A stretch of DNA of 64,000 nt from contig CM038216.1 of assembly GCA_021442155.1 (NCBI GenBank), forward strand, positions 92,677,666 to 92,741,665, read 5' to 3'. Every line of letters begins with the position of its first letter. The first letter of the stretch is position 1. Both the position numbers and the translations under genes were made by a program. Below are positions 27,146 through 49,721 of this stretch, one piece after another. The DNA comes from Cymbidium sinense (lineage: Eukaryota > Streptophyta > Magnoliopsida > Asparagales > Orchidaceae). The notes under the pieces were generated by a model. That model was not told the DNA's origin, did no database searches, and was given only the letters and a program-made list of their open reading frames with translations.

Positions 27146-27398
27146 TAGGGGTGTAAAGCGAGCTTGAGCGAGCAGACTCTTGTTGGGCTTTCGTTTTGTT
27201 AGTTTCGGCTCATTTATATATCGAGCTTGAAATGTCTGTTCGTGTTCGGCTCATTTAACTAAACGAGCTAACGAGCCGAACACGAGCTGTTTATGAACAA
27301 CAAGCTTTTTTGACAGAGGGAGGATTCGAACCTGGGCCAATCTTTTGCATAACAAAGTTTTATTAAGTCACTTGCATTTGTGATATGTAAATGTGTTC

Positions 27399-27455
<57 letters not shown>

Positions 27456-27732
27456 TAATAGTAATAAAATAATAATAAATAAAATAATAGTAATACAATA
27501 ATAATAATAATAAAAGTAATAAATAATAATAATAATAATATAATATAATATAATATAATTTTTTATTTCAAACTAAATCGAGCCGAACACGATTGAACAA
27601 ATGATTGTTCATATTCTATTTATATATCGAGTTTAAAATGTCTTCATGTTGCGGCTCATTTAGTTAATGAGCCAAACACGAGCCATAGCAGAAATAAACG
27701 AGTGAACACAGCAACGAGCTTTTTTTGACTTA
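27146..27732. mobile_element. hAT-like non-autonomous insertion in the integrase
   Basis: A 587-bp piece beginning TAGGGGTGTAAAGCGAGC, a start typical of many small plant hAT elements. It is flanked by an 8-bp duplication, TATATGAT, at 27138-27145 and 27733-27740. Gypsy-2 (about 50918-50930) shows the uninterrupted site with nearly the same sequence, which fixes the boundaries. Inside are GAGCCGAACACGAGC-type repeats in both orientations and an AAT microsatellite. The far end (CTTTTTTTGACTTA) is only a weak inverted match to the start. No transposase is present. Confidence 0.65.
27404..27560. repeat. AAT/ATAAT microsatellite
   Basis: A run of AAT trinucleotides with interruptions (ATAATA, AGTAAT, ATAATATAAT), inside the hAT-like insertion. 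Confidence 0.95.
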
Positions 27733-28377
27733 TATATGATATGGTTCTAAAACTAAAGCACATTTGAGATGACCTCTCGAATGGGATTACCTCACTTGGA
27801 AAAGTAGAGTTAAGATGAACTAATGCCCTTGGAAGAAGATGATCGGACCCACAATGTCGGTACCTAACACGAATGGCCATGAGGACAATGTAGGTGTAGA
27901 ATTTTGGGTTGTTTATGGAGGACCACACCGTAGACATCGATGGTATCTCCATCTATCCATGTATCTATAATCAAGGCCAATAGTATCCTAGCAATCTTCA
28001 TCTTCATCTTCACCGGATTGATGTGCTGCATAGACCTAAATGTACCTCGACACCAATGGCTTCATGTTTATCTAAACAACGTAACCATTTGGTCATCAAA
28101 GACTAAAAGATAAATCAACAAGCATAGAGAGAGCTCTCTATTTCACTGATGGGCTTATGACTTTTCTTGAGGTGTTCAAATAGTCTATGAATGGTTGCCT
28201 CCAATCTAGCTCCTTGTCCTTTTTGGCAATGGCAACCTCCCCTTCAAGAGAAAGTCTCTTGATGAGTTCAACATTAATAAGAGATAAGACTTGTCTATTT
28301 TGGATCCTTATTGAAATGGACTCATCTTCTATGCCAATTCTTTAAGTTTACCAAAAGCATGCTATTGTGTTCTTTGC

Positions 28378-28960
28378 TCAGGGAATCTTGTAGATGATGA
28401 CTTTGAGAATTTGGGCCAATAGCTTCATGGTATACTCGTGGTAATGATGAAGCTTGGGTTTGAGAACCTTGTAGGACGCAATCGATGATGACCAACCGAG
28501 AATCTCAAGATGTTTGATGGCTAACTCTAGACCATTAATCAAAGCCTCATTCTCTTCATTTGGTAAAGATAGTATGAGAATCTCATCATCGCGGTCAGTT
28601 AAGAAACTATTCCTACCTTGCCTTTCCTGGAAGAGTAGATCGTGGTGCTTCCCTTTTATGAAAAGAAGCTGCACCATCAAAATACATCTCCCATCGGTGG
28701 TTGTTAACCTCCCCTAAGTTCATGATTTGTTCATCAGGGAGATCATCACTAAGCAAAAAATCAACAGGAAGTGGGTGTGATGCTAAGAAATTTGCTAGTG
28801 CTTATCCTTTTACCATACGAAGGGGTACAAATATGATATCAAACTGTGAGAGAATCATGGACCATCATGCCAAACATTTGGATAGTGTTGGCTATGTCAT
28901 GAGATACTGCAGTGGATTGGTTCTGGACATCAAGTTCACCTTATGAGAAATCATGTAGTG
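28378..28960 (-). pseudogene. Gypsy-1 second RNase H and tether
   Basis: Read downward, a tether ending SDDLPDEQIMNLG is followed by HRWEMYFDGAASFHKREAPR. This is the start of the second RNase H found between RNase H and integrase in Tat-like elements. A frameshift follows. The frame 28680-28378 then carries NEENEALINGLELAIKHLEI, the degraded NNEAEYEAL helix, and LLAQILKVIIYKIP leading to the integrase. Gypsy-2 49722-50200 is the counterpart. Confidence 0.8.
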
Positions 28961-29335
28961 CCATAGCTTTTGAGAGGCAAAGATCAAACCTAGGCAATAT
29001 TACTCAATAGGTGGATAGTTTGCTTCAGCAAGAATAAGATGATGGCCGAGGTACTAAAGAGCATTCTCCTTCCCTTCATCATTGGCTTAGGCCAACAGAG
29101 CACCAAGAGAGTCATCTAATGTAGCAGTGTAGAGGATGAGTGGCTTGCCCGAGATAGGGGCTGCTAGAACTGGGGGCTTCACCAAATACTGCTTGATGTC
29201 TTCAAAAGTATGCTGGCACTTGTCATCCCACTTGAAATTGGCATCCTTTTTGACAAGTGCTAAAAATGGTTTGCATCTCCCCGATAAGTTGGAAATAAAG
29301 CATGTTAGATATGCCAACCATCCTTGGAAGGATCT
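28961..29335 (-). pseudogene. Gypsy-1 first RNase H
   Basis: The region after RT. The frame 29317-29087 reads FISNLSGRCKPFLALVKKDA, then FKWDDKCQHTFEDIKQYLVK, then LILYTATLDDSLGALLA. This is the RT thumb and the beginning of the Gypsy RNase H, which degrades the RNA of the RNA-DNA hybrid. The rest (29086-28961) is broken by stops but keeps the order of Gypsy-2 49470-49600. Confidence 0.8.
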
Positions 29336-30160
29336 GAGTTAAGTTAAGGATCTGAGTTAAGTTAAACTCTTAGGAGGTGGCATTTCTAAGATAGCTTTAA
29401 TCTTTTGATCTATTTCTATTCCTCGATGTCAGACAACAAACCCAAGGAATTTCCCCTAAGCTACTCCGAATGCACACTTTAGAGGATTCATTTTAAGGTT
29501 ATATTTTCTTAACCGTTTAAAAACTACTCTCAAGTCGAAGAGATGGTCTTCATTTTCTCTAAACTTGACTACTAGATCATCAACGTAGCACTCAACCAGA
29601 TGGTGGATGAGTTTGTTAAAGATCTGAGTCATGCCCTGGTATGTAGCACATTTTAAAAAGGCATGACCCTATAATAGAAGATTCGATCATGGTTCAAAAG
29701 TAGTGTTTCTTTCATCTTTAGGAGACATTTTGATTTGGTTTTAGCGATGACCCATCCATGAAAGAAAATTACATGAGATGAGCGATGTCCACCATTAATT
29801 CGTATAGGAAGAGGAAACTCATCCTTAGGACATGCCTTATTTAAGTCTCAAATTGATGCATATGCAAATTTGGCCATTCTTCTTCTTAGGGATGAGCTAA
29901 CCGTAGGATATTTTTCTTCCCGATGAAGCCAAGCATCGATCAATTTCTTGACTTTAAATGACGTTGTTCATTTCTAGCATGTGTCTTGGAGCTTGCTTGA
30001 TAGGGGTAGCGTTAGGATCTATTGCTAGCTTGTTGACTGCTACATCAGGAGATAATCTAGGCATATCTTCATAACTCCATGTGAAGCAATCTTTAAACTC
30101 AGTCAATAGCCTAACTAAGTCATTGGTTTCTTCTTCAGAATGAACGATGTACGGCATGGA
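29336..30160 (-). pseudogene. Gypsy-1 reverse transcriptase
   Basis: The start is the frame 30157-29954: VHSEEETNDLVRLLTEFKDC, then LAIDPNATPIKQAPR, the usual entry to Gypsy RT. Downstream, in several frames, are remnants of the palm. The catalytic YVDD is at 29576-29587, inside VECYVDDLVVKF. Stops and shifts break the frame several times. The enzyme would copy the element's RNA into DNA in virus-like particles. Confidence 0.83.
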
Positions 30161-31379
30161 TTTTCTTCATCCCAGGTTGATTTCTTTAAGCTTGTCAATT
30201 ATTGAATGAATCTCCAAATTCAAATTAGTGGTGCATCTTTAATTTGGAGATCATCCGATCATCTAAGATTTCTAAACACACATTGTCATGAGAGTTGGTG
30301 TTGTGTGAAAAGAACCTATTGACTCCAAATGATTGGTAATAGCTCAAGTAATCATCATTCAGACACCGTAATGAATCCTAGTTCTGCTCTTTATTGTGCT
30401 TTCCTTCCTATATTGTTCCATAGCTTTTCAAAGTACTCTGACCTATGCCTTGACCATGTGTGAGGAACTAAACCTTTCTGTATAAGATTATGAACAAAAG
30501 GTGAGTAAAAGTCAAATGATAATTCCATTAATTCTTTAAATGAATTCTCCTCAAGTTTTACATCAACTTCAGGACTTGAGGAGGATGATCCCAAAAAGAA
30601 TCTCTTGCTTCATATCACTGGAAGACTTAGGGGCTTCCTTAACTACTAAACCTTCAAATTTTTGAGATGAAAGTGAGGATAGAGCTAAGGTTCCCAACTG
30701 CTACCAAATAGTCTCACATAAACTTAATTCAAATACTTTGCTTTGTCTGGAGGCCCAGTCTTTGTCACCATCTAGATTGAAAGTCACCTCCAATGGAACC
30801 CACTATGAGGGGTTGGCTGGTATACTAATCACATTAGACTCATCCTCCGAGCTAGATTCCAATTCTATGTGAATATTAGGAGTGCTCATATGAACTGGAA
30901 CATGACCCCAATTGGCTGATGACCAATCAGGGGGTCTTCCACCTCTGGAATTGCCTCTGCCTGGTGGAGGTTGAGTCATCCTACTCACATGTCCATATGA
31001 TGGAATGAACTATGGGTGGAATGTGATATGCAGATCTACTTATTCTTCAATTCCTCTCTTCTTGTTGGATTTTTATTTTCTTTTCTTTTGCCTTTTCTTT
31101 TCTTCTTCATTATTTTTCTTTTTTGAGTTTTATCCAAGTTCATGAGAAATGGTGTTTTGAGGAAGATAGTAGGCCGCATCCTCATAAATCTCAACCTTTC
31201 TAACAGAAAATGGCTTTTCATCTCCATTGACATGGCATTCAATCCCATCCTTTCTTAACTTGATGCAATGATGGAGGGAGGATTGAATTATCTTATTTTG
31301 ATGTATCCAAGGCCTACCAAGCAAAGTGGTGAAAGTATTCAATCAATGATGTAAAACTTTGCTTCAGCTTATCACCTAT
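30161..31379 (-). pseudogene. Gypsy-1 pol linker between protease and RT
   Basis: Degraded coding sequence with no known domain, conserved in Gypsy-2. Landmarks on the minus strand are LGSSSSSPEVD-like sequence with KELMELSFDFYSPFVHNL and VPHTWSRHRSEYFEKLWNN (30594-30391). Next is a Pro/Gly/Arg-rich piece, MTQPPPGRGNSRGGRPPDWS (30988 downward). A Lys/Glu-rich stretch lies at 31248-31036. The same three pieces occur in the same order at 47285-48120. It is probably an unstructured spacer of the polyprotein. Confidence 0.7.
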
Positions 31380-31810
31380 CTCCAAGGTAACACTATAGAA
31401 CCTAAAGCCCACACCTTGTTCATTGAATCCTCTCAACATATCATCCTCGTGAGTGTGAGATGTCAATCCTCAGGGTCTTTAGACTCATAATGTTCACCGA
31501 TGCACCTGGATCAGAACTCTAGCAAGTCTGAATCTGCCCATGTCAACTGTGATGTAGAGACGTTGTGCTCCAAGTCCCCAAAATAAGGTCTTCATCTGTG
31601 AAAGTGATCCCGGCTTCTTTATGTAATATTCCTTTCACCAATAGCTCATGAGCTAAGCATATCTCAGGATCAAGAAGAGCCTTGATTAATGATTCCCTCA
31701 TCTCTTTGGATAAGACAAGGGCATCGTATATGCTTAGCTTAGATGGCAACTTTCTTAGATGAGAGAGGACTTTGTAGTCCACCTTGGGCTGATCCTCCAC
31801 AAGCATATCT
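31380..31810 (-). pseudogene. Gypsy-1 aspartic protease region
   Basis: The frame 31806-31543 holds LVEDQPKVDYKVLSHLRKLP and KLSIYDALVLSKEMRESLIK, the segment just before the protease. Just below it, ITVDMGRFRLARVLI, a frameshift, and GASVNIMSLKTL match the Gypsy-2 protease, whose active site reads VDPGAS. The frameshift falls at the active-site Asp. The enzyme would mature the Gag-Pol polyprotein. Confidence 0.75.
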
Positions 31811-32300
31811 AAGGGTGGAGCATCCTATGGAGGGGCTTCGATCCTCTGTACTAATGACTTATTTCCCTCTCTGGGTGCCTTAGGAGGTAGAACCTGCCTG
31901 GAGGTTGACTGATCTCTAGGGTAATGGAAGGTTCTACGCACACCACCTATAGCTTCTCCTATGGGACCCTCAAAATCGATGATTCCAAGTCTATCTCAAG
32001 AGGTGAACTCATAGCATTTAGAGTAGGAAAGTCCTGGATCAAAAAAGAGGAAGATCAAATTATTATAGTTATTTTGACTTGAAGAGTTATCATTAAGAAT
32101 AGAAGTAGACAACCCATAAGGGACATAGATGTAATTCAAGCCATTTTTATTCTTCAATTTCTTAGATTTGATAGGTGGTACAGAGTAAAAAATCAAGTAA
32201 AAGTAAGTGGTAAGGGATTTGATGCCCTTATCCACCCGATAGAGTTCTACTAGAAGAAGAAGAACTAGCTAAAGTAGAGGAAGTCATGTGGTAGCTACAA
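31811..32300 (-). pseudogene. Gypsy-1 conserved segment between gag and protease
   Basis: The frame 32235-31996 reads MDKGIKSLTTYFYLIFYSVP, then a Lys/Asn-rich stretch, then a Ser/Asn-rich tail. Gypsy-2 46212-46415 has MDEGIKSLTPLILLDFYYVP at the matching place. I do not recognise a domain. Its conservation in both copies shows it belongs to the element. Confidence 0.65.
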
Positions 32301-33530
32301 AGAATAGGTTGACTCGGCTATTGGGCTATCCCATGACATACGTCAGCACCATCTCCTTTCCCTGAAGGATCGCAACATGCAAACCTTCCTTGATGTTGGA
32401 GGTTTGACCTGCACCTGCAAGGAAAGTTTCTTGATCTTCTAGACAATCTTTTTAGAAGTTTTGGATATAGAGATATCCTAACCTTTTTTATTTTTGGAAG
32501 GATCACAAGTATCCCCAAGGATTACCCTAATAGAACTGGATGGTTGTTCCATAAGGGATCCTTTTGGGATAACTACAACATTGATCTTGAAGCTATGTTC
32601 AAGCCAGTCCTTAAATGTGAATGAATCCCCCAAAACATGACTTAGGATATGGTAGAGAAAAGTTAGATCATGGCTTTTGCCCACTTCCTCCAGCTCCTAG
32701 CTCAAAAGCTAAGAGATTCTTTAAAGATCTTCCGATTACCTTCCTCTTAAATGAATAAGGTTTGTTGAGTTTATCCAAAAGAGTAGGTGGACCATAGCTA
32801 CTTGGTGTGCCATTTTGATGATATGGTGAGGCAATGGAGGCTATTGTGGAGGCTAGTAGGGCTACCCTCAATGGTGGAGAGGAAGGAAAGCTGAGGTCGT
32901 GGTCTCTGACTGATCTCTACTGTTGCTTCCCTTATCCACTGTATCGCCCCACGCTTCTCATAGACCTTCTATGACTTTGCTTTGGGAACCGGTCTTGAAA
33001 AGGCAATTGTTTGGCCTCTCCTTATAGACTACCTTGTTGATTAGCTTCTCAAAGGTTTTGATGGTGAAACCCTTATGAAGGCGACGGGCCATGGATATTT
33101 TTTAGAAGAATCTCAATGGCATCTTTTAGACATGGTACATTTTATACTCGTTATGCCATTTGAGAGTCAACAAGGGAGTCCCTGTTGTTACAACAAGATC
33201 CAACAGTAACCCTTTGCTGAGCTCCAGTAAAACTCTTGATAAAGAGTTGCTCCAACTCAACAAATATATTTATTGAACCATTGGGAAGTTCAGCATACCA
33301 ATCGAAAGCTATCCACTAGGCTACTAACAAAGAGGCAAAATAGTAAAGCATCCGCCATCACATTAACAACGCCCTAAAGTGTGTAATATGCTACTTCGGG
33401 TTTCCACTGCCATCAAAACTCTTGAAGGAAGGTGGCAAGAAACCCTTGGGATATTGGATTGCATCAAATTCCTCTTGGGGTCAACCCTTTGGAACCGATG
33501 ATCCTCCCTAAGCTTGAGCCAATGCTTCAC
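32301..33530 (-). pseudogene. Gypsy-1 gag core with zinc-knuckle-like end
   Basis: From about 33500 down: EEFDAIQY, PPSFKSFDGSGNP, then a region matching plant retrotransposon Gag (capsid). At 32871-32478 it ends with a broken form of the PYHHMLGHVLEDCFTFKD-type motif, here FLYHILSHVLGDSFTFKD. In plant Gypsy Gag this position normally has a C-x2-H-x4-H-x4-C knuckle for RNA binding; two of its metal ligands are lost here. Several stops interrupt the frame. Confidence 0.78.
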
Positions 33531-34170
33531 CACTCAACCATAGATCGATATCTTTCTCCTATATGGAGGTACTTTCACTACCTTCCTATACATGCTAGTG
33601 CTACCTTGCATGAGGTAAGGTCTGTGGGTCCAAGACATGCACTAACTCTAGCTGATTAATCTTAGTTGTAGTAGGATGAACTACGCTTGTTCAAGAATAG
33701 ATAACAAGTCCTCAAGCTACCTCACCATCTTATCTATTTGTTCATCTTTTGCTTTAATTGATATCGAGGTGTTTAAATGTGTCTTCTAACCTCATCACCT
33801 TCCATACTCTCGAGGAGGGATCCCTAGTATTTACCATGCAATCCTCAGTTGAGTCTCCTAACAAATCATCTTCATTGGGATCAAAGCTGATCTTCTCCTC
33901 ATTAGACCAGTCGTATCTTAGGATCTCCTTCTTTTCTATGAAATAGTAAGCTACTATGTCATCTAAAGACTGATATGTTGAAACTGGTACAAATGCTTTC
34001 GGTTGACTGGTAATGGGATCCACATCATGAACTGTAAGGCATCGTACCTCCCCTACTACTATAGAATCAATCTGTGATGTCACTAGAAAAAATGCACTCG
34101 CTATCATTGACTCAAATGGGTGACACTCTGAGGCTCTACTATCATGGGTTCTATCATCTCCTCTCACAAT
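33531..34170 (-). pseudogene. Gypsy-1 Gag N-terminal region
   Basis: A 137-codon frame (34167-33754) ends RVWKVMRLEDTFKHLDIN. The sequence then continues after a stop with charged residues that could form a coiled coil leading to the Gag core. It is rich in Asp, Glu and Ser. I recognise no family. Position and orientation suggest the N-terminal extension of Gag. The overlapping plus-strand frames look like shadows. Confidence 0.5.
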
Positions 34171-35300
34171 ACTACCACCATCTCTATGTTCTATTGAATG
34201 GTGTTGGTGAAGGGATGACCATTATTTGGTCCATTCCCTCCACACCACAATGGGTCGAAAGGTGGAGAGAGCTTGCCTCCATAATAGGTGGTGTAGATGG
34301 AATGGAATCCTTTGGCCGTAGCCAAATCACCAATGAGGTTCTCTTCTCCCCGGATGTGGCCTTCATGGCCTTTGGTGGAAATGGAGATGCTGCAATAAGA
34401 ACGGGGTGATGGTGCATGGGAGGTAGAGCGGTGTGGTGGAGACACCACTGACTCTCTCAGAACAGGGGCCCTCTTCCTATTATGGTTCATCCCTTTAAGC
34501 AAAATACTATCTGTGTGATCGACGCGGGTAGCTCATGGATCAGAGAAATTAATGAGTGCAGAACTGCCAACCAAACCTCGCCTCACCTAGTGATATGTCG
34601 TAGTGTGCCTCCGGCCCTCTCTCATAGATGTTTCCCCACACTATGGGGGATAATAGATCCCAAATTGAATTGAGCTCCGAACTCAGAACATCTGTAAGCT
34701 CCAACCTCGCTAGAATCAATGAGGTCGGCATATGACCTCCTCCTCTAGCTAACTACTGCTTGGTACTAAACCGTTGGTGGAGGTGAAGTGAAGATCCTCC
34801 TAGCATCCTCTCTATCAGACCTAGAGAGAGGATGGAATGGGTTCACAATAACTAGTGGAAATTAGAGTTGGAAGCTCCTCCACAACTGACCATGTAGCGG
34901 CCTCCATCTCCCAGGTAATACGTGTGTGATACTGCTTAATCATGTGCTTTTTTGTTCCGCCTTTAAGTCTTGGTAGGGTGAGTGGAGTAAGAACTAGACC
35001 CAATCTCTGGGATCAGAGGAGCCTTACCTTTAAAGGGTGCTAATGAGTGCCTGCTAGCCCTTCCTAGTGTAGCATGAGAAACCACAGGATGCACTGAGAC
35101 TAGTGGTGATGCTGGTACTTTCACTACCTTCCTGTTTAGAGAGGGGATATTAGAGACAGATCAATCAATGACCGCTGCACCACTGGTCCTACTAACACTT
35201 GTGAGGGAGTACCCTGATCCTTGCCCCTCAAACCTCTACCAAGATGAGATGGGTGTAATCAAGGGAGATGATCCAAGGCCAAGTCCATGCATAGGGAAAG
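34171..35300 (-). other. Gypsy-1 leader or N-terminal region, unrecognised
   Basis: About 1.1 kb with higher GC than the flanks and only short open frames on both strands (60-111 codons), none matching a family I know. It lies between the recognisable Gag region and the AT-rich palindrome array. It may be decayed N-terminal coding sequence or leader. Confidence 0.4.
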
Positions 35301-35442
35301 TAAACACAAATTTCTATGAAGCGCCATTATAGTCAAAAAAAACTAAACTAAACTATAGCAATTGAGATCGAGAATGTAATGTTGGAAACAAACTTGGATC
35401 AAATTTTGTATTGATTAATTTGAATTTAAAATTTGAAAATTT
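35301..35442. other. AT-rich transition into the palindrome array
   Basis: A change from mixed composition to T/A-rich sequence, including an A run near 35336. No gene, terminal repeat or primer-binding site was recognised here. Confidence 0.4.
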
Positions 35443-37286
35443 GAACCCACATCCAACATCTTGGAAGTGTTAAGTGGGTTCAAATGGATTTAGAGGATTT
35501 AGAGATTTGATTGGAAAGAGGAATTTTGAATATGAATCCAATTTCAAAAATTTGGGTATGTTGAAAATGGGTTTAAATATTTTTAGAAAGATGCTTCCAT
35601 AGGTTCATTTTGAAATTAGATTTTGATTTGAGGACCCTTTCCTTTAACAAATTTGAGTATGTTAAAGTAAGGGTCAATTGGTTTTATTTTTGATTTGATA
35701 TTTTGGAATTCACTCACTTAGCAAATTTGGGTGCTAAGTGAGGTGTTTGAAAATAATTGTTTTTTCTTTGGTTGTTTTATCTTGTGAATTATTGGTGATT
35801 TTGAAAATTGGAATTCCCACTTAGCAAATTCGGGTATGCTAAGTGAAGAACCCAAGTGTGTTTTGTATTTTGGAAAAATTTGGAAATTTTATGAAAATAG
35901 GGTTCTTAGCAAATTTGAGTATGCTAAGCAAATCCTAAACTATTTCATTTATTTTGGATATTTTGATTTTGAAAAGTAGGATCCTTAGCAAATTTATGTA
36001 TGCTAGGGGAATCCTGATGTGTTTCATTTTGATTTTGATTTATTTTTGAAAATTAGGATCCTTAGCAAACTTATGTATGCTAAGGGAATCCTAATGTGTT
36101 TCTTTTGGTTTTGATTTGTCTTTGATTGAAAGTGGAGACTTCACTTTAACAAATATGGTATACTAACAAAATGAAGTTCCACTTAATTTTGTGAAATGGA
36201 AATTTCACATAGAAAATTTGAGTATGCTAAATGAAGTTTCAAAATATGTGTTTAAAATATTTGTGTTTTGGTTTTATTTTGAAGATAAAAGCTTCACTTT
36301 AGCAAATTTGGTGTGTTAAAGAGTGAAGTTCCAAAAGTGCTTTCGGAAATTTTGTGAAGTGGAAATTTCATTTAGCAAATTTTTGTATGCTAAATGAAAT
36401 TCCAAAGGTGTTTCAAATTTTTGTTTTGGATTTTGAAAAGGGGAGACTTCATTTTAGCAAATGGGGTATGCTAAATTGAAATTCCAAATATGTTTTAAAA
36501 TTTTTATGGAATGGATATTTCACTTAGCAAATTTTGAGTATGCTAAATGAAATTTCCAAAAGTGTGTTTCAAATTTTATTTTGGGAAAAAGGGAGACTTA
36601 ATTTTATCAAATGGGATATGCTAAAATGAAGTTTCAAATGTATTTTGAAAAATTTTTTTTTGTTGATTTTTGAAAAGAGAGATTTCCATTTAACAAATTT
36701 GGGTATGTAAGATGGAAAACAATTATGTTTCATTCTCCAAAGATGTATATTTTGTGTGATTGTTGTGAAAGAGAAATCCCAACCTAATCATATGTGTAAT
36801 TTTCTAAGTGGGATTTCAAGGTGATGTCTTTTTATTTGGAGATGAAATTTTCATTCAAAAATTTGGGTATATTGAATGGAGATATTCATATGTGCTTTTG
36901 AAAATTTTAGTTTTGTTTGAAAATAAAACTTTCATTCAATAAGTATGGGTATATTGAATGGAAAGGTTCATATGTGCTTTTTTTTTAAAATTTATTTTTG
37001 ATTTTGTTTGAAAATGAGACCTCCACCCAATAAGTGTGTGTGTATATTAAATGGAGAGGTTTCATATGTGCTTTTTGAAAATATGAAAATCCCAACCTAA
37101 CACATGTGGAATGTATTTGGTGGAAGTTCAAAGTTATGATTTTTCTTGAAGAGGTAACATCCATTCAATACATTTGGATGTATTGAATGGGAAGGCCCAT
37201 CTTCAAATTTTATGCTTTTGAAAATATGATTGTTGGAATTTTATTTTTGAAAATGAGGTCTTCACCAAAAATGAATTGAGTGAAGA
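35443..37286. repeat. Array of about 22 covarying palindromes (array A)
   Basis: Short inverted repeats start near 35443, 35538, 35633, 35711, 35818, 35905, 35978, 36053, 36132, 36199, 36292, 36361, 36442, 36513, 36592, 36683, 36773, 36852, 36928, 37017, 37161 and 37260, a mean spacing of about 83 bp. Each has arms of about 7-17 bp around a loop often close to AAATTTGGGTA. The arm sequence changes from unit to unit but stays self-complementary: GAACCCAC/GTGGGTTC, CTTTAACA/TGTTAAAG, CACTTAGCA/TGCTAAGTG, GAAATCCCA/TGGGATTTC, CCATTCAATACA/TGTATTGAATGG. Spacers are T/A-rich and related (TTTGAAAATT-like). There is no coding potential. It sits just upstream of Gypsy-1 gag. Confidence 0.85.
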
Positions 37287-37836
37287 AACTCATTTGTATT
37301 TTTATAAAATGTAATTGTTGGAATCTTATTTTTGTAAAGATGATCTTACATATAACAACCATAAAGATTGTTAGATGAGGGTGATTTAGGAAAATTTTGT
37401 GCAAAATATTTTATTATGTGCATTTTGAAAGAGTCCTTTTGAAAAGCATGATTTTTATAAGGATTTATTTGTCTTTATTATTTTAGAATGAACCTTTCCT
37501 TATCATAGAAATTATAAGGAAGTCTTTAAATGTTTTCTTTTAGATCTTTTATTTTACCCATTGGAGAACCTAACAGGGTTTTAAGACCAACATGAGGTCC
37601 TAAAACCTAAAAAAAATGTTGGCTAGCTAACTTAAGGATGAAATAAGCTAAGCCAATAGAATGAAAGATAGTCATTCATGCCAAAGTACAACCCACTATC
37701 AATAGTTGGAGACAATGATCATTTACCAAAGATGGAGAGAGGAACGGTCCCAAATGGAAATGAAAAATAGAAATGTTTCTTCATCTACCATCCTTTTGAA
37801 GAGGATAAATAAAAAAAAGAAATATATGCCTTTAGT
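37287..37836. other. AT-rich sequence between array A and the 4.4-kb block
   Basis: No gene is visible. It includes AACCTAACAGGGTTTTAAGACC (37569-37590; only part of it self-complementary) and a CCAACATGAGGTCCTAAAACC stretch. A retrotransposon boundary could lie here, but I could not identify a TG..CA end or a primer-binding site. Confidence 0.4.
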
Positions 37837-40800: not shown

Positions 40801-42200
40801 AATGAGATGACATAAAATCTCACAAGGAATTTAAATTTGCAATGCACCTCAAGAAAAGGGCCTAATGCAATTTGGTTCATGATTAATGATTAATTAAACT
40901 AAGGGGTTTTAACTTAAGTAATTTCATAACCTCCCTCACACATGTGAGTTGAGCTTTGATTTGCTTAATGTACTTAGGCTCTTAAACACCTAAGCATATA
41001 TAAAAGATAGATTAATTACGTTCTGGAAGGTTTTAGATTTTATGAAATTAATTAAGGGGTAATTAGTGAATTAACCATTAAGGGAGAAAATGGAATATCT
41101 CAATGAAAGCATCCCAAATTTATTCCCTAAACCTCATAATCACTCAATCAAAACTTAATTGACTCAATCGAGGGTTAAACCACTATTAAGCCATTAATTA
41201 AGCCTAATTATGTTAAGGGAGTGATTAAGGAATGAACTAGCAATTCCCATAATTAATCCACCAAAAATCCCAAGAAAATTAGAGGAGGCAGGAGTCATCC
41301 CACTAATTAGGCACAAAAAGTTTGGGATTAATCAAGAAAGTAATTAAAGGGTAATTTCGAAAATTAACATTCCCAATAAAACCAAAATTTAGAGAAAATA
41401 ATTATTCAAAATCAATTAAAGTTAATTTTAAAATATTCAATGTTCAATTATCCTTCTTATGCAATTTATTTCATATTTTTATAATTTTTCTACACTTTGA
41501 TATAAATTTAGGAAAATTTGGTGATTAGTTAAAAATTAAATAATTCCTAATTATATTATTAATCCCGTCGGTGCCATGTGTGCCGCTGACGTGGCAAGCG
41601 CTTTACACGTGGTGTGATGGGAATGGGTACTTAACCCATCATATCATAGTGCCACATGGCGGTGGCGCTACGCACTTTCTCCTCAGCCATTCGATCAAGG
41701 ATAAAATGATAGAGATTAAAGCCACGGATCTGAGGGAAGAAATTATGGATGCTATGCATTTTAATCTTGGTCATCCATCCAAAATGCACGGATGGATAGC
41801 TAGAGATTCATCCCTATAATCCTCTATGAGCCATGTAGACCGTCCATGTTTGAGGCCATGATCCGAGCTCGATTGAGCTCAAATTGGAATGAAAATCAAC
41901 CCACACCATCTAAGCATGAGTACAAGAACATCTAATGGCTAGATCAACCTAGGATTGAAATTTACTTCACAAAGGACCAACATACATTGAACTTGAGCTT
42001 GAAAAAATGGCATACCTCGCAGGAGGTGATCACCGGTACTCGATTCCCTAGGAAGCTTCGTCTAGTTGAGATGAAGCTTTCTGAAGTTTGGAGGCTTTAA
42101 AATTGAGTGGATGCTTCTATGGGTCAACTCCTCCTTGCCTTGAGCTTGACCTTGATCAAATTGGATCCTCCCTTGCCTTCAGAGCTTGGGAAAGAGCTTG
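37837..42200. repeat. LTR-like block, left copy of an inverted pair
   Basis: AT-rich, non-coding, about 4.4 kb. It matches 58160-63232 in inverted orientation over most of its length. Anchors are 37837-37880 with 63190-63232, 38041-38120 with 62900-63000, 39915-39975 with 60412-60470 (the unusual GTCCAGACT / AGTCTGGAC region), and 41999-42075 with 58323-58400. Size, AT-richness and position beside gag in a Tat-like family suggest a long LTR or untranslated region. Element ends were not identified, so it is not clear to which Gypsy it belongs. Long Tat/Ogre LTRs are known. Confidence 0.7.
41565..41670. promoter_or_regulatory. GC-rich island with ACGT-core motifs in the LTR-like block
   Basis: A short GC-richer island within AT-rich sequence, containing TGACGTGGCA, ACACGTGG and GCCACATGG. 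These resemble plant G-box and ACGT-core sites bound by bZIP or bHLH factors, which occur in promoters. The inverted partner keeps GCCACATG-type words (near 58785-58830). The short open frame across it (41571-41819) has no recognisable product. Regulatory function is inferred only. Confidence 0.35.
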
Positions 42201-42650
42201 GGCAAGTTTGACTTGGTCCTCTGATGGAGCTTGGAGAAGGAATTGGGTTGATGTTGAGTGTGGAGTAAATTCAAATTTCAGTGGAGCTCCCCTATTTTTA
42301 GTTGATGAAAATCAAGAAAATCAAGTTTCAAACTCTCTCTAGGAAGCTTAGGAAGAATCTCTAAGGCTTGCTCTGAGTTCATATGCTTCAATCGACTGAG
42401 GGAGACTAAAGATTGAATTGAATTAGGGGCAGTATATCTCCCTTGAGCAAAGATGGTCAAGGATTATGCCATTTTGATGAATACACCTCATGCAATGAGT
42501 TGGTTATTTTTGAATTATGTGGTTTGATTTTGGCCAGAAAGAGTGGGTGAGGTGGCCTTGTGCTTGAATTGAGTGTAAGGATTTCCATGTGGCCATTTCA
42601 ATGGGATTGGTCGATTTGGGGCTGACCCAAACCCATCATTGGGTGCACCA
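42201..42650 (+). other. Non-coding join before palindrome array B
   Basis: Sequence with GAGCTTGG and GAAAATCAAG words and no recognisable domain. The inverted partner copy ends near the level of 42200, so this part has no second copy in the window. Confidence 0.4.
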
Positions 42651-43607
42651 CACTCCTTAGTGTTCACTTGATCCACTAAAAGAGTGCTAAGTGGTTATGG
42701 AGAGGATTTGACCAAATTCCAAATGGATTTAAAATTTACTATGGGGTAAAAAATGGTCATTTGACCTTGATTTCAGTTTGGGTATGTTTGATATGATGAG
42801 AAAATAGGTTTGGCCAAGTTTCATTGGATTTAGAGTTGGTTTGATGTGATTTGGCTCATGTTGACCCATTTAGGTAAAAATTATTCAACTTGGGTCAAGT
42901 TGATCTCAAATTGGTCAAACCAAGGGTTGAGACAAGTCCATATGACCATTTGAAATGTTTTGGTGGCTTTGGTTTGATTCAATTTGCTTTAGGTTTGAAT
43001 TTGGTTTAGATGATTTCATTTAGGTAAATGGGTCAAGTATTTGACCCATTTGACCTATTTTGGGTAGATTTAGGTTTGGTTGGTCATATGAAAGGGATTA
43101 GTATCTTTGTTTCCAATCAATTTAGGTTTGAATTTGGCTCAATCCCTTTAGTCAAGTCTTGGTCAATAGCTAGGTTGTCTAGATAGCCAATTGGAGCCTT
43201 GGTCAAGTTCAACAATCATTTTGGAATGAACTTGACCCATTGGTTTCAATTAATTTGGCTTAGATCAAGTTTTGACACATTTTAACTTTTAGGTCAAGTT
43301 GGGTCAACTTGGGTCAAGTGGCCAATAAGTTAGGCTCAAATGTTGGCTTGGATAAATTCAAATATTTATCATGAATGAACTTAGGTCATTAGTTTCAATC
43401 AATTTAGCCTATGGTGGATTTTAACTATCTTGGGTTTCATTTTGGCTAAGTGTTGACTTGGTCAACCATTAGGTTTGACTTGGTTTGACCCAATTTGAGT
43501 GATTGATCATCTCATGATGAGAGGTTTAGGTGGGCTTAGTTCAAACTAATTTGGATTAGAATTTGGCTCATAAGGGTACTTTAGGTCACTTTGGGTCAAG
43601 TGAGCCT
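42651..43607. repeat. Palindrome array B1, GGTCAA-type stems
   Basis: Inverted repeats spaced about 100-200 bp apart. Examples are CACTC..TAGTG with CACTA..GAGTG (42651-42686); TTGACCC with GGGTCAA (42861-42898); AAATGGGTCAA with TTGACCCATTT around four bases (43026-43051); GGTCAAGTTCA with TGAACTTGACC (43201-43237), inside outer arms AGCCAA and TTGGCT (43185 and 43260); GGTCAACC with GGTTTGACC (43460-43490); and AGGTCACTT with AAGTGAGCCT (43583-43607). Spacers are T/G-rich with GGTTTGAATTTGG words. There is no coding potential. It lies upstream of Gypsy-2 gag, as array A lies upstream of Gypsy-1 gag. Confidence 0.7.
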
Positions 43608-43965
43608 AACTGGGTCAAATTGGTCAAAAGCTTGATTTGTTTGATTGAACTCACATATTGACTTATGATTGAAATATAAATCCATTTGCAAGTGGTTTGA
43701 AGTCAAATGTTTTGATTCATTTAACAAGTTCAAAGGGTGAACATGAGTTTGACTTTGGTTTTATTTTTGAATTGAGTTTTGGTTAAGTGATTGAGGTTTG
43801 TATTTATATTATTTATTCATGACTAGAATTGATTGAATCATGAAGGAAAATCAAGGATTTGGCTTGATTTGAAATTGATTTGGCTAAGTTCAATATTTTG
43901 ACTTAAAAGGCTTAGATGGATTTTAATTCAATTTGAATTTAATTTGAGTTGGTTTGGTTTATATT

Positions 43966-43968
<3 letters not shown>
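43608..43968. other. T/G-rich spacer
   Basis: Continues the composition of array B1 (GATTTGAATT-like words) without a clear palindrome. No gene is visible. Confidence 0.5.

Positions 43969-44048
<80 letters not shown>
43969..44048. repeat. (TA)40 microsatellite
   Basis: Eighty bases of uninterrupted TA. It can fold on itself, and its length is likely to vary between individuals and to be unreliable in assembly. Confidence 0.98.
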
Positions 44049-44050
<2 letters not shown>

Positions 44051-44112
44051 GAGAATATAAATGGGTTAAGAGAAAATTTCATGAGTTTGAAGTGATTTGA
44101 ACATGATCTAGG

Positions 44113-44502
44113 CTAAGTCCTTGAGAGAAAATCGATGTGACTTAGGGAAGTTTTGTGATTAGAATTTGACTTTTGTCTTTTTTTTTTTATTGATTTGAAT
44201 TTATATTTTATTTATATATGTGAATATAAATGAGAATATAAATTAGTTATGAGAAAATTTATGAATTTGAATTGATTTAAATTTGATTTATTCTATGTCC
44301 ATGAAGGGAAATCGAAGGACTTAGGAAAGATTTTGAATTTGGAATTTGAATTTTGGATTTTTATTTGATTGATTTGAACTTATGTTTCATTTATATATGT
44401 GAATATAAATGATAATAAAAATGAGTTGTGAGAAATTTTATGAGTTTGAATTGATTTGAAGATGATTTAGGCTAAGTCCTCAAGAGGGAATTAAGGACTT
44501 AG
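44113..44502. repeat. Palindrome array B2, CTAAGTCC-type stems
   Basis: Three palindromes about 180 bp apart in near-identical surroundings: CTAAGTC/GACTTAG (44113-44145), CTATGTCC/GGACTTAG with one mismatch (44293-44324), and CTAAGTCCT/AGGACTTAG (44472-44502). The spacers share GAATATAAATGAGAATATAA and ATTTGAATTGATTTGAA-like words, so this is a tandem repeat of about 180 bp with a hairpin in each unit. No gene is visible. Confidence 0.72.
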
Positions 44503-44879
44503 GAAGTAATTTGGAATTTCAACTTTGGATTTCAATCATGGATTTCAATCATGGGTTTCAATCATGTGGAATTGATTTGAGTTTGGAGAAAATCAACAAT
44601 GGAATTGGTTTAGGTTTGATGTTGATTTGATTTGGAGTTTGACTTGAAGGAAGGAGGAATTTGGTTCAAGCTATGGGTAGAAAATTTTCTAACACCCAAA
44701 GCATGACCTATTCCTATGGCTAACTCTTCTAAGTCTCTAGGGTTAGAGTGTCCACCTAATCACTAGATGTGTCTTAAGACTAAGGATCCCTTAAAATCTA
44801 AGAGATAATATGTCAAAGATGGAGGTTGAGAGCTCATCCTAAAAATGAGGTCAATAATATCAAACTCATGGTTGAACAA

Positions 44880-45960
44880 CAAGTGAAGGAAGTGCTAGCG
44901 CAAACTTGAGGTGGTTCGTCAGTTCCAAAGAGTAGACCCTACCCAGAGGAATTTGATGCTATCCAATATTTTGTGCCTCCATTTTTCAAAAGTTTTGATG
45001 ATAGTGGGAACCCTCACCAACATATAGCACAATTCTGGCAATGCTGAAATGTTATTGTTTCATCTCTTGTTAGTATAGCTTTTGATTGTACATTGAACTC
45101 ACCAATAATTAAGTGAAAACTTTTGCTAAGTTGGAGCACCTCTTTGTTAAGAGGTCACAGCTCAAAGAAAGGGTAATGTGATCTCATTAGCTCAATAAAT
45201 CCCCTGAGTCCCTCATAATTATATTCTTAGATGGCACAATTTAAGCATGAAATGTGAACCATTTTTGAATAGCATGCTATTGAAATTTATTAAAGAATAT
45301 TCATGGCGTCACCTACATGCTTAAAGGTTTCACCATTAAGACATTTGAGAAGTTAATCAATAAGACGGCCAGCCTACAAGGAGAGGCCAAACTGTTGCCT
45401 TTTCAAGATCAGTCATTAAAGCCAAAGTTATAGAAAGCCTATGAAAAGAAGCCAGGGGAAGTAGCAGCATTGGATAAGGGGAAGCAAGAGATGATGAGAC
45501 CTGAGCTCAACAACCTTCGCTTCCACCTCCTTACCACCACCTCGGCCATCTTATCGGCCACCTCAGCAGCCTCCATGGCCTTCCCCACCTCCTCCTCAGC
45601 CATACTTCCAGCAGTGGTAAACATACCCACTTTATCACCCACACTCTTTTGGATAAATTAAAAAAACTTATACAAGAGGGAGGTAGTTAAAAAAATCTTT
45701 AAGAACCTCTTAAAGAAACCTAATTTTCAACTTCCCGAGCCTGGAAAGCTAGAGGAAGTGGGTAAAAGTAATGATCCTAACTTTTGCCCCTACCACCACA
45801 TGCTAGGACATGTTTTGGAGGATTGCTTTACATTTAAGGACTCGCTTGAGCATAGCTACAAGTTAGGTGCTAAAAACAACCATCCATTTAGGTAATCCTT
45901 GGGGATACATGTGATCCTCTCAAAATAAAAGAATATTGGGATATCTCTTTATCTCAAACC
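44880..45960 (+). pseudogene. Gypsy-2 gag
   Basis: Begins near PEEFDAIQYFVPPFFKSFDD and GNPHQHIAQF, the entry to the plant Gypsy capsid domain. Then come AKLEHLF and KTASLQGEAK with stops between, a Pro/Ser/Ala-rich part near 45500-45640, and PYHHMLGHVLEDCFTFKD near 45789-45842. The last is the RNA-binding knuckle with His/His/Cys ligands still visible; the first Cys is present just before it in NFCPYH. Gag would form the virus-like particle. The copy is broken by several stops. Confidence 0.78.
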
Positions 45961-46199
45961 TCTAAAAAAGATCATTTCTAAAATCAAGAAACTTTCTAGG
46001 TGCTCAAAACCTCCAATATTAAAGAAAGTTTGCAGGTTTCCAAAGACAACTTAGGGAAAGTGGGAGCTCAGTAGTAATAGCAGCAGCCCATACTTGCCCG
46101 GGATAGCCAAGTGGCATAACCACCGACTGATCTAGCCTCCATTCCATCATAACTACTTCAGCTAGCATTCCTACTTCAGCTAGTTCTTCTTCTAGTAGA

Positions 46200-46415
46200 C
46201 ATCTTGTATCGATGGATGAGGGCATCAAATCCCTCACCCCACTTATTTTACTAGATTTCTACTATGTACCTCCTTTTAAATCTAAGAAATCAAGGAATAA
46301 AGCTAGTTTGAATTACATTTGTACCACTTCTGATGGGTTATTTGATTCTACTCCTTTAGAAAACTCTTCAAGTCTTAATAATTATAGCAACTCGATCATC
46401 CTCTTTGATTCGTAG
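46200..46415 (+). pseudogene. Gypsy-2 conserved segment between gag and protease
   Basis: MDEGIKSLTPLILLDFYYVP followed by Lys/Asn-rich and Ser/Asn-rich sequence. It matches Gypsy-1 32235-31996 over most of its length. It corresponds to no domain I know. Confidence 0.65.
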
Positions 46416-46649
46416 ATGGAGTTTCCTTCTCTAAATAATAATGGGTTCACCTCTTGAGATAGACTTGGAATCATCTCGAGGGTCCTAGGAGAAGCTATAG
46501 GTGAATGATGAGCGTAGAACTTTCCATTAAACCATCTCATGAAGTCACCAAAGTCAACCTTCATAGTGGGAAAGTTATACCTCCTGGGTAGAACCTCAAG
46601 ACAAGGGGAAGCAATTCATTGGTTCTAATGATCAAGAAGCCCTCCACGG

Positions 46650-47130
46650 ATGCTCCACCCATGGATATGCTTGTAGAGGATCACCAGAGTTGACTATAAT
46701 ATCCTCGCCACCTAAGAAAGTTGCTACTAAACTAAGCATATATGATGCCCTTGTCTTATCCAAAGAGATGAGGGAATCATTAATCAAGGCCCTTCTTAAT
46801 CCAGAAATATGTTTAGCTTAGCTTATCATTATTGGAGAGGAGGCACATTATTCAAGAGAAGCCTAGGGAGTCACATTCACTGATGAAGACCTTCTTTTGG
46901 GGGACATGGAGCACAATTATCCCCTCTACATCACAGTGGATATGGGTAGATTCAGACTTTCTAGGGTATTGGTTGATCCAGGTGCATCAGTGAACATTAT
47001 GAGCCTAAAAACCCTTGCCTATTTGAAGATTGACATCTCTGAACTCCAAGGAGATCAGATGATGTTGAGAGGATTCAATGAATAGAGGGCTTTAGGCTCC
47101 ATAGTGTTACATTTGGAAATAGAACCGGAA
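46650..47130 (+). pseudogene. Gypsy-2 aspartic protease
   Basis: The frame 46897-47085 reads YPLYITVDMGRFRLSRVLVD followed by PGASVNIMSLKTLAYL. The active site is at 46972-46989 (VDPGAS), where the family usually has D-T/G/S-G; Asp is retained and a Pro follows it. Upstream, LVEDHQS and a shifted copy of the SIYDALVLSKEM segment match Gypsy-1. The frame closes at 47085 after GFNE. It would cleave Gag-Pol. Confidence 0.78.
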
Positions 47131-48410
47131 GAGAAGCCAAGTTCTATATAATTGATTTGAATGCATTGTTCATTGCTTTGCTTGGTAGGCCTTGGATATC
47201 ATAAAATAAGATGATTCCATCCTCTCTTCATCAGTGCATCAAATTTTTAAAAGATGGAATCGAATACTGTGTCAAAGGAGATGAATGCCATTCTCAGTTA
47301 GAGAGGTCGAGATATATGAGGATGTGACCTATTATCTTCCTCAAAATCAAAACACCTATTCTCCTGAACTTGACCAAAGTTCAAATGCAAAAGAAAAAGA
47401 AAGAGAAGAAAAGAAAAGAAAAAAAAAGAAAAGAAAAGAGAAAGTACAAACGAATGAGAAATCGAGGAAGAGGTAGAGCCGCATATTACATTCCACCCTT
47501 AGTTCATTCCATACAGACATATGGGTAGGATGAATCGACCTCCACCAAGTAGGTAGAGGTAGATACAGAGGCATTTCCAAAGGTGGAAGACCCCCTAGTT
47601 GGCAGTGAGCCAATAGGGGTTATGTCCTAGTTCACAGGAGTATTCCTGCTATTCACGTAGACTTGGAATCCAAATTTGGATGAGTTTCATGTGATTAGAT
47701 ACACCCAACCCCTCTCGGGTTTCATTAGAGGTGACACATGAGCCGCAGGATGAAGACCAGTGCCTCCAAGAAAGCACATGTATGTATTCAATCAAGATTA
47801 TGTAAAACCATTAGGAAGCTTGGGGAACCTTAGCTCTAACCCTACTTTTTTTCTCAAAAGTTGAGGGTTTGGTAGTTAAGGAGGCCCCTAGATCTTCCAT
47901 GGATGTCAAGCCAAAGAGATTCATGTTGGGATCATCATCGTCAAGTCCAGAAGTAGATGCAAAACTTAAGGATAATTCATATAAAGATTTAATGGAATTA
48001 CCTTTTGATTGGTACTCACCTTGTGTTTATAATCTTGCAAAGAAAGGTTTAATTCCTTACACATGGTCCTGGCATAAGTCAGAGTATTTCAAGAAGTTGT
48101 GCAACAATAAAGGCAAAAATGCACAATCAAGACCAGGGCTAGGATTTGGTATAGTGGGTTTAGTCGACAATGATGATTACTGCTTAGTTGTCACCAATCA
48201 TCTGGAATCTGATAGGATTTTCTCAAACCACACTAACTCTTATGAGGAGGTATGTTTAGAAACTTTAGATGATCCTGATGATCTTCAAATCAAAGATGCA
48301 CCTCCAGAATTTGAAGAAGGAATCAACTCAACCATTGAAAAAGCACAAAAAAATAAACATCAAGACAGAAGAAAATCCATGGCCCACATACATCAATTCT
48401 CTGTTGAATG
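47131..48410 (+). pseudogene. Gypsy-2 pol linker with Lys/Glu-rich tract
   Basis: Remnants of the protease-to-RT linker. A Lys/Glu/Arg-rich frame (47285-47476) is encoded by an almost pure purine tract (47390-47455). RPPP and GGRPP-type sequence follows near 47535-47600. The 180-codon frame 47869-48411 carries MLGSSSSSPEVDAKL, MELPFDWYSPCVYNL, IPYTWSWHKSEYFKKL, and then an acidic stretch with DDPDDLQIKDAPPEFEEG. The last frame is the longest open piece of the element. Confidence 0.7.
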
Positions 48411-49063
48411 AAGATAAAACTAATGACTTAGTTAGGCTATTGATTGAGTTTAAGGACTGCTTTGCATGGAGCTATGAAGAGATACCCAGATTATCTCCAA
48501 ATGTATCAGTCCACAAACTAGCAATAGACCCTAATGCTAACCCTATCAAGCAAGCTCCTAGATGCATGCGATTAGAAATCGAACAACAAGTCATTTCTGA
48601 AGTCAAAAAATAGATCAATGCGAATTTTATTAGTGAAGAAAAATATGCTGCATAGTTAGCCAGTGTCGTCCTAGTTAAGTAGAAGATATGCATCGATTTC
48701 AAGGACTTAAATAAGGCATGTCCTAAGGATGAATTTTCACTTCCTATACCAGAATTAATGGTGGACATCGCCTCATCTCATGCATTATTCTCCTTCATGG
48801 ATGGGTCATCTAGCTATAACCATATTAAGATAGCCTCTGAGGATGAAAGAAACACTACTTTTCAAACCCTGACCGATATCTATTATTATAAGGTCATTCC
48901 TTTCAACCTTAAAAATTCTGATGCTACATACCAGTGGGCCATGAATCAGATCTTCAATGAACTCATTCATCATCAAGTTGAATGCTATGTTGATGATCTA
49001 GTAGTCAAAAGCAAAGAAAAGGAAGACCATCTCTTTGACTTGAGAGTAGTTTCAAATGGTTAA
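48405..49063 (+). pseudogene. Gypsy-2 reverse transcriptase
   Basis: Starts with NEDKTNDLVRLLIEFKDCFA and LAIDPNANPIKQAPR. After stops it continues with ICIDFKDLNKACPKDEFSLP (palm motif A, catalytic Asp in CIDF), FMDGSSSYNHIKIA, and YYYKVIPFNLKNSDATYQWA. The catalytic box YVDD is at 48986-48997, within VECYVDDLVVKSKEKEDHL. Family elements have GLKNAGATYQ where this copy has NLKNSDATYQ. At least three stops interrupt it (for example near 48613 and 48655). Confidence 0.87.
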
Positions 49064-49610
49064 GACAATTTAAACTCAAAATGAACCCCCTGAAGTGTGC
49101 ATTCAGAGTGGCTTCAAGAAAGTTTCTTGGGTTTATTATCCAACATCAAGGAATAGAGATAAACCCAAAAAAGATCAAAGCTATCTTAGAAATGCCACCC
49201 CCTAAAAGTCTTACTCAACTCAGATCATTTCAAGGGTGGTTGGCATCTCTAAGGTGATTTATCTCCAATCTATCGGGGAGATGTAAGCCATTTTCAGCAC
49301 TTGTCAAAAAAGATGCCAAGTTTAAGTGGGATGACAAGTGCCAACATGCTTTTGAAGACATCAAACAATATTTGGTGAAGTTAGTTCTAGTCCCTACCTC
49401 TGGCAACTTATCTTCTACACCGTTGGATAACTCCCTTAGCACTTTGTTGGCACAAACCAATGATGAATGGTTGGAGAATGCTCTCTACTACCTCAGTCAT
49501 CATCTAATCCCTATTGAAGCAAACTACCCACCTATTGAGAAACATTGCCTAGCTTTAATCTTCACATCCCAAAAGCAATGGATTACATGCTCTCTCATAA
49601 GGTAAACTTG
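49064..49610 (+). pseudogene. Gypsy-2 RT thumb and first RNase H
   Basis: MNPLKCAFRVASRKFLGFII, GIEINPKKIKAILEMPPPKS, SLTQLRSFQGWLASL, FISNLSGRCKPFSALVKKDA, FKWDDKCQHAFEDIKQYLVK, then after a shift LENALYYLSHHLIPIEANYP and PIEKHCLALIFTSQK. These are the standard Gypsy RT connection and RNase H words in the correct order. The middle of RNase H (the LYL...GALLAQ segment) is shortened by a deletion compared with Gypsy-1. Confidence 0.83.
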
Positions 49611-49721
49611 ATTTCAAAAATCAATCAATAAGATCTCATGACGTGACCAATGCTATCCAGATGACTGGCACATTGGTCCATGATTCTCTCGTAGTTTAAT
49701 ATTATATTCGTACCCCTTTGC

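What the first reader, a model, noticed from the sequence alone, without database searches (positions are those of the whole stretch)
35443..37286. About 22 tandem palindromes with covarying stems upstream of a Gypsy gag
Seen: palindromes recur every 67-107 bp (mean about 83) across 1.8 kb. From unit to unit both arms change together so that pairing is kept: CTTTAACA/TGTTAAAG, CACTTAGCA/TGCTAAGTG, CATTTAGCA/TGCTAAATG, GAACCCAC/GTGGGTTC, GAAATCCCA/TGGGATTTC, CCATTCAATACA/TGTATTGAATGG. Stems reach 16 of 17 pairs (36361-36403). The loops and spacers keep a common flavour (AAATTTGGGTA; TTTGAAAATT). Ordinary decay of a tandem repeat would destroy pairing. Compensatory change points either to selection on a folded RNA or single-stranded DNA, or to arm-to-arm copying during replication. 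Known: Tat/Ogre elements carry long untranslated regions, sometimes with tandem repeats. I know of no described family with covarying hairpins of this kind.
Basis: partly seen in the sequence, partly recalled or inferred. Interest (0 to 1): 0.88.

Follow-up and report, generated by a model that had tools for sequence, protein, structure and literature searches.

The report
Tandem covarying hairpins beside plant retrotransposon
A 2.3 kb stretch of plant DNA next to a degenerate Gypsy-type retrotransposon is a row of some 25 hairpins that changed sequence from copy to copy while mostly keeping their own arms matched, which suggests that the folded shape mattered; what it did is not known.

Summary
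Confirmed, and longer than claimed: 25 hairpin units at 35439-37521 plus four less regular ones out to 35399 and 37677. Units' own arms fit better than arms dealt among units (0 of 100,000, z about 10), also at sites chosen by loop motif alone (0 of 20,000) and with the inner 6 bp left out (0 of 100,000); the own arm ranks first in 14 of 25. In 14 central units the head is conserved (loop 75%, inner stem 79%) while the outer stem varies like the spacer (about 50%) yet pairs, as constraint on shape predicts. But G-T and A-C mismatches are equal (15, 16), so no strand-specific RNA selection shows, and close units differ mostly on one side. Arm-to-arm templating or DNA-level selection is not excluded. 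The array lies about 1.9 kb 5' of the gag-like start of a degenerate minus-strand Gypsy; ownership is unproven. A second element's leader is hairpin-rich too, without covariation shown. Tandem repeats in Tat elements are known; covarying hairpins did not appear in nine paper searches. The own-genome search did not complete in eight tries.

The parts
35399..37677 (.). whole hairpin array (25 regular units plus 4 less regular hairpins at its ends)
35399..35436 (.). edge hairpin, TCAAATTTT / AAAATTTGA, left end
35439..35485 (.). unit 1
35530..35578 (.). unit 2
35633..35675 (.). unit 3, CTTTAACA/TGTTAAAG
35711..35745 (.). unit 4, CTCACTTAGCA/TGCTAAGTGAG
35808..35855 (.). unit 5
35898..35937 (.). 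unit 6
35978..36015 (.). unit 7
36052..36095 (.). unit 8
36134..36180 (.). unit 9 (weak)
36199..36240 (.). unit 10 (weak)
36289..36330 (.). unit 11 (weak)
36360..36404 (.). unit 12, best stem, 17 Watson-Crick pairs and one bulge
36442..36485 (.). unit 13
36512..36558 (.). unit 14
36593..36635 (.). unit 15
36683..36718 (.). unit 16
36773..36817 (.). unit 17
36842..36889 (.). unit 18
36926..36968 (.). unit 19
37014..37065. unit 20 (weak; extent, only 37030-37045 with the shorter arms)
37087..37128 (.). unit 21
37161..37190 (.). unit 22, CCATTCAATACA/TGTATTGAATGG
37251..37295 (.). unit 23
37340..37385 (.). unit 24
37496..37521 (.). unit 25
37577..37607 (.). edge hairpin GGTTTTAAGACC/GGTCCTAAAACC (one A-C mismatch)
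   Evidence: position; pairing read by eye
37619..37656 (.). edge hairpin TTGGCTAGCT/AGCTAAGCCAA (one bulge)
   Evidence: position; pairing read by eye
37659..37677 (.). edge hairpin GAATGA/TCATTC
   Evidence: position; pairing read by eye
27728..33519 (-). element B: degenerate gag-pol-like stretch, 73% identical to element A; the array lies on its 5' side
   Evidence: the name rests on the homology to A and on my reading
33757..35160 (-). ORF fragments between B's gag-like start and the array; no Pfam match for the three pieces tried; no relative found for the 155-aa piece
44898..51228 (+). element A: degenerate gag-pol of a second, Tat-type Gypsy, cut by a LINE-like sequence
   Evidence: Tat and LINE labels by eye
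42100..44720 (+). non-coding stretch upstream of A's gag-like start, hairpin-rich but without shown covariation

Best explanation
A non-coding part of a plant Tat-lineage (Ogre/Retand-like) Gypsy element, perhaps the leader of minus-strand element B, grew head to tail from one hairpin unit. While the element was active, the copies kept their hairpins: a sequence-conserved head (inner stem TTAGCA/TGCTAA around a loop like AATTTGGGTA in the 14 central units) on an outer stem free to change as long as it paired. The likeliest reason is that the fold was used: a row of about 25 like hairpins would be a many-fold binding platform on the element's RNA or single-stranded cDNA, for example for Gag or another partner in packaging or reverse transcription. 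Shown: the array, the unit-specific pairing and the conserved head. Inferred: selection as the cause, ownership by B, which nucleic acid folds, and the partner.
For: Own-arm pairing beats dealt arms: z about 10, 0 of 100,000; motif-anchored 0 of 20,000; outer stem alone 0 of 100,000, also within the 14 central units. Head conserved (loop 0.75, inner stem 0.79) while outer stem (0.52 and 0.50) is as variable as spacer (0.49) in the 14 central units. Predicted RNA energy of own arms -14.0 (+) and -13.3 (-) kcal/mol against -7.8 and -7.2 with dealt arms, 0 of 20,000 each. C makes up 13% of hairpins but 4.5% of spacers on the + strand. Double-sided changes rise with unit divergence: 32 of 140, 207 of 580, 309 of 752 and 115 of 229 changed cells in four identity bins, as in stepwise compensation. 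B's gag-pol-like stretch reads away from the array, starting at 33.5 kb.
Against: G-T 15 and A-C 16 mismatches: no preference for wobble on either strand; in rRNA 78.5% of two-step compensations affected G-U or U-G pairs (PMC8794818, section read). The copy is degenerate, so decay after insertion may have blurred this. Only one copy was seen. Inner-stem pairing within the 14 central units is not above permutation (8342 of 100,000), since the head hardly varies; own arm is best in only 14 of 25 units; two of five alignment measures are no better than shuffles. Composition of the array's + strand (C 9%, G 19%, T 39%) resembles the + strand of A's leader (C 11%, G 22%, T 38%) and not B's sense strand, weak evidence against ownership by B. 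No Rfam match at gathering scores.
Confidence: 0.42

Rival explanations
1. Mutational, not selective: short-range template switching (by reverse transcriptase or DNA polymerase folding back on a hairpin) copies one arm onto the other and so keeps arms matched; the same stalls cause strand transfers that add and remove units.
For: Template switching is reported to create and repair hairpin stems (PMC8794818, abstract and one section). Equal G-T and A-C mismatch counts need no RNA. Outer stems drift as fast as spacers. [quoted passage not shown]
Against: The head is more conserved than the spacer, which copying alone does not predict. Close units (65% identity or more, 29 pairs among 21 units) differ on one side in 108 and on both in 32 cells, so instantaneous double changes do not dominate, though later decay adds single changes. 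No inverted loop seen among the 14 central units (read).
Confidence: 0.3
2. Selection on double-stranded DNA: each palindrome is a dyad binding site for a protein (host factor or element-encoded), or extrudes as a cruciform.
For: Strand symmetry of mismatches; conserved head sequence. DNA-binding is predicted for a Retand extra-ORF domain (PMC11963269, abstract).
Against: A binding site would conserve sequence, but the outer stem, and the head of most of units 17-25, change while pairing stays.
Confidence: 0.15
3. On ownership rather than mechanism, so it can hold together with any of the others: the array is an independent satellite or foldback-type repeat, not part of B or any Gypsy, into or beside which elements inserted.
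For: No direct repeats flanking B in 26501-64000 and no convincing primer site: one of two recalled motifs has one match with 3 mismatches at 33842-33859 on B's strand, reached by chance in 9 of 100 shuffles. A repeat shared with another locus (about 37836-42080) starts some 160 bp to the right; + strand composition unlike B's sense.
Against: A's non-coding leader is hairpin-rich too, so hairpin-rich non-coding stretches do occur in such elements. Pattern scans gave no array elsewhere, but those collections are viral and prokaryotic.
Confidence: 0.28
4. Chance palindromes in AT-rich tandem DNA.
For: The sequence is T-rich and repetitive; some units are weak.
Against: Shuffles and permutations.
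Confidence: 0.02

Closest known systems
Tandem-repeat arrays of Tat-lineage Gypsy elements (Ogre, Retand, Gmr9/GmOgre minisatellites)
   Same: Non-coding, hypervariable, head-to-tail repeats inside Tat elements (PMC11963269, PMC3305785 and PMC7004042, abstracts or passages).
   Different: The arrays in those passages lie downstream of pol; this one lies 5' of B's gag-like start. The word hairpin occurs 0 times in the main text of these three papers; 'palindrom' occurs twice in PMC11963269, seen in a cited title.
An 82-bp tandem repeat of Gypsy/TAT elements in Coffea
   Same: Period about 82-83 bp and link to TAT elements.
   Different: Known here only from a title in the reference list of PMC11963269; sequence and folding not seen.
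Template-switch hairpins (Monttinen and Loytynoja 2022, PMC8794818)
   Same: Arms kept complementary with paired changes (abstract and one section).
   Different: That work concerns RNA genes; here about 25 units lie in tandem and single-sided differences prevail between close units.
Satellite DNAs with dyad symmetry (for example Tribolium madens, PMC13081366; search listing only)
   Same: Tandem units with inverted symmetry.
   Different: Not compared: the paper was not opened, and the listing does not mention unit-to-unit covariation.

Membership tests
Tat-lineage tandem-repeat array | head-to-tail units, three or more | tested here: met
   25 units; the closer ones align at 60-90%
Tat-lineage tandem-repeat array | lies inside a Tat element | tested here: inconclusive
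   next to B's 5' side, but no LTR, convincing primer site or second copy to prove it
Tat-lineage tandem-repeat array | between pol and the 3' LTR | tested here: not met
   for B the array is upstream of the gag-like start; it could be met only if the array belongs to another, unseen element
Ogre/Retand (Tat) Gypsy, for elements A and B | reverse transcriptase, then RNase H, then a second (archaeal) RNase H before integrase | tested here: inconclusive
   Pfam RVT_1 in A, E 9.5e-16; 49695-50114 had no Pfam match; the RNase H domains are read by eye; order rule from PMC6317226 (passage); B judged by its homology to A
Template-switch hairpins | instantaneous multi-base paired changes | tested here: inconclusive
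   doubles are 32 of 140 changed cells between close units; no tree of copies
Template-switch hairpins | loop inversions | tested here: not met
   none seen by eye in 14 central units; loop inversion is only one outcome of the mechanism
Strand-specific structured RNA | wobble pairs in excess of A-C mismatches on one strand | tested here: not met
   15 against 16; later decay could hide an excess
Known Rfam RNA family | match at gathering score | tested here: not met
   0 matches in the window
Plant microRNA cluster | 21-24-nt small RNAs from the hairpins | not testable with these tools
   no small-RNA data

The most novel reading that the evidence does not exclude
A retrotransposon carries a polyvalent array of about 25 tandem hairpins with a conserved head and structure-only outer stems, maintained by compensatory change and used as a many-fold binding platform in its RNA or cDNA: a cis-acting element that I did not meet for plant Gypsy elements in nine paper searches.
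Probability: 0.3. Interest if true: 0.78.

Novelty: new variant of a known kind. Interest (0 to 1): 0.6.

Why it matters
Tandem repeats in Tat elements are common and seed satellites (PMC7004042, passages), but their origin and function are called unknown (PMC11963269, passage). Unit-specific compensatory change would give a first handle: it would say that the shape of the unit, not its whole sequence, is what is kept, and it offers about 25 parallel replicates within one locus for separating selection on a fold from arm-to-arm copying.

Tried and rejected
Chance: rejected by shuffles and permutations. Selection bias in picking hairpins by eye: tested with loop-motif anchors; several of those sites are not unit loops and score low, and they were kept. 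Known RNA family: none at gathering scores. Relatives of the hairpin elsewhere in the window: covariance model R1, built from the 25 units, gave 26 matches: 21 of the 25 units (9, 13, 17 and 21 missed), four reverse-strand echoes inside the array, and one match outside it at 56950-57013 (E 0.35, not pursued); one search used those 21 rows and dropped the other five. A's leader as a sister array: hairpin-rich (4 against 0.77 expected in 43000-43950, 0 of 150; 4 against 0.87 in 44065-44720, 2 of 150; 5 against 1.5 in 42100-43950, 4 of 150), no covariation shown; the z of 12 is inflated by an (AT)n run. One search also gave milder excesses (summed score z 3.2 to 4.7) in other windows (26501, 33501, 41501, 48501, 57501, 62501), so palindromes are not confined to the array, only densest there. 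Plant copies in public collections: 0 pattern matches in viral contigs, no relative of the RT there, 3 single matches in bacterial genomes, taken as chance and not opened. Primer-site search: two recalled motifs; one match with 3 mismatches at 33842-33859, within chance, and none for the other. The 155-aa ORF beside the array: no relative at E 0.001. Whole-array folding was stopped by the time limit before its shuffles reported; the hairpin scanner replaced it. Papers other than the five opened in part were seen as search listings only, and several listings were cut (15 of 23; 12 of 15; 12 of 33; 8 of 81).

Full report
Observation. The stretch 35399-37677 is a row of hairpins. I defined 25 units, with centres 63-103 bp apart for the first 24 (mean 83) and 145 bp for the last. 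Four less regular hairpins extend it on both sides. Hairpins of score 8 or more number 17 against 4.2 expected (0 of 150 shuffles). The control stretches tested reach their counts in many shuffles: gag-pol of A 106 of 150, gag-pol of B 150 of 150, the LINE-like stretch 119 of 150, the repeat to the right 47 and 17 of 150, the ORF stretch beside B 9 of 150. A coarser scan shows milder excesses in some other windows.

Covariation. I dealt the 3' arms among the 25 units. Own arms score 260 against 117.8 +- 13.1 (24-nt arms, anchored at the loop), reached by 0 of 100,000 permutations; three other settings give z 9.5 to 10.1. The own arm ranks first in 14 of 25 units; units 9, 10, 11 and 20 are poor. 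Since I had picked units partly by their pairing, I repeated the test at 25 sites chosen only by similarity to the loop motif AATTTGGGTA (26 found, the first dropped as too near the edge): 174 against 77.5 +- 12.3, 0 of 20,000. Leaving out the inner 6 bp, the outer stem alone gives z 6.9 for the 25 units and 4.2 for the 14 central ones, 0 of 100,000 each; the inner 6 bp alone in the central units do not exceed permutation (8342 of 100,000) because they hardly vary. RNA energies tell the same on both strands. The plain alignment test is weaker: three of five measures exceed the shuffles, two do not, and its shuffles ignore relatedness.

Anatomy. In units 3-16 the loop (0.75) and inner stem (0.79) are conserved; stem positions 7-12 (0.52) and 13-18 (0.50) are as variable as the spacer (0.49). 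So the outer stem is kept by pairing, not by sequence. Many stems carry a bulge of 1-2 nt some 5-15 positions from the loop (read). Spacers on the + strand hold 4.5% C against 13% in hairpins. Units 17-25 mostly have other heads (ATTCAATA, CCTAA and others).

Which molecule and which cause. Mismatches inside stems are 15 G-T (9.4 expected) and 16 A-C (9.0 expected): neither strand shows the wobble excess of a selected RNA. If 78.5% of such steps ran through wobble, the figure reported for rRNA, counts this even would have a probability of 0.0002 (+) or 0.0008 (-); that yardstick is rough, and decay of an old copy would dilute any signal. Among 210 pairs of the 21 units aligned by the covariance model, changed cells are double-sided in 32 of 140 for the closest pairs and in 115 of 229 for the most distant. 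Pairs are not independent, and late decay adds single changes. This looks like stepwise compensation rather than whole-arm copying, but does not prove it. An earlier count on the inner 8 positions alone gave double-sided shares of 47% to 88% at each level of difference, which fits copying better; it groups units by those same 8 positions, not by overall relatedness.

Surroundings. To the left lies element B, on the minus strand (33519 to 27728), 73% identical to element A on the plus strand (44898 to 50922). A's reverse transcriptase matches Pfam RVT_1 and 77 proteins, of which named ones are mostly plant (Vitis, Sesamum, Lithospermum, Dendrobium) and two bear bacterial names. The labels gag, Tat and LINE rest on position and my reading of the translations; Pfam matched only the reverse transcriptase among ten pieces, including one from the gag-like part and one from the LINE-like part. 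Between B's gag-like start and the array lie ORF fragments without matches. To the right, about 37836-42080 is a repeat with a second copy at 58321-63222, perhaps A's 5' LTR, but without a recognised primer site. A's leader is also C-poor on the plus strand and hairpin-rich. The array's composition resembles that leader in the + orientation, a weak sign against B as owner. Ownership stays open.

Known and new. Tat elements are known for hypervariable tandem arrays 3' of pol. In nine answered paper searches I saw no title or start of an abstract on covarying tandem hairpins; three papers searched by term hold no hairpin. Subscription papers are mostly not held; the 2009 paper on Tat 3' regions, cited, was not looked up.

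Limits. One copy, one genome, unnamed host, and an own-genome search that did not complete. Selection is the best guess, not shown.

Noticed in passing
1-26500: About 26 kb of degenerate TTTAGGG-like blocks alternating with TTTATTTTAG-rich blocks, roughly 1 kb apart (table cut at 150 of 339 rows); looks like telomere-type satellite.
   Followed up: no
26576-26675: A run of 100 N: an assembly gap, so the telomere-like part may not be the true neighbour.
   Followed up: no
51228-58100: A minus-strand LINE-like sequence (label by eye; one piece had no Pfam match) with a poly-T at 51228 cuts element A inside what should be its integrase.
   Followed up: partly
37836-42080 and 58321-63222: Two inverted copies (68-71% identical pieces) of a repeat of over 4 kb, possibly an LTR, with a shared AGGTAAGT splice-donor-like motif near 38508.
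   Followed up: partly
44016-44532: About three tandem copies of a 180-bp unit in A's leader, with palindromes that stay much the same rather than covary (partly by eye).
   Followed up: partly
27142-27728: An insertion of about 585 bp in B relative to A, with GAGCCGAACACGA inverted motifs and an AT-rich microsatellite, flanked by ATCATATA on both sides (read).
   Followed up: no
33757-34221: A 155-aa minus-strand open frame with no Pfam match and no relative at E 0.001 in one protein search, which sees only relatives sharing short exact words.
   Followed up: yes
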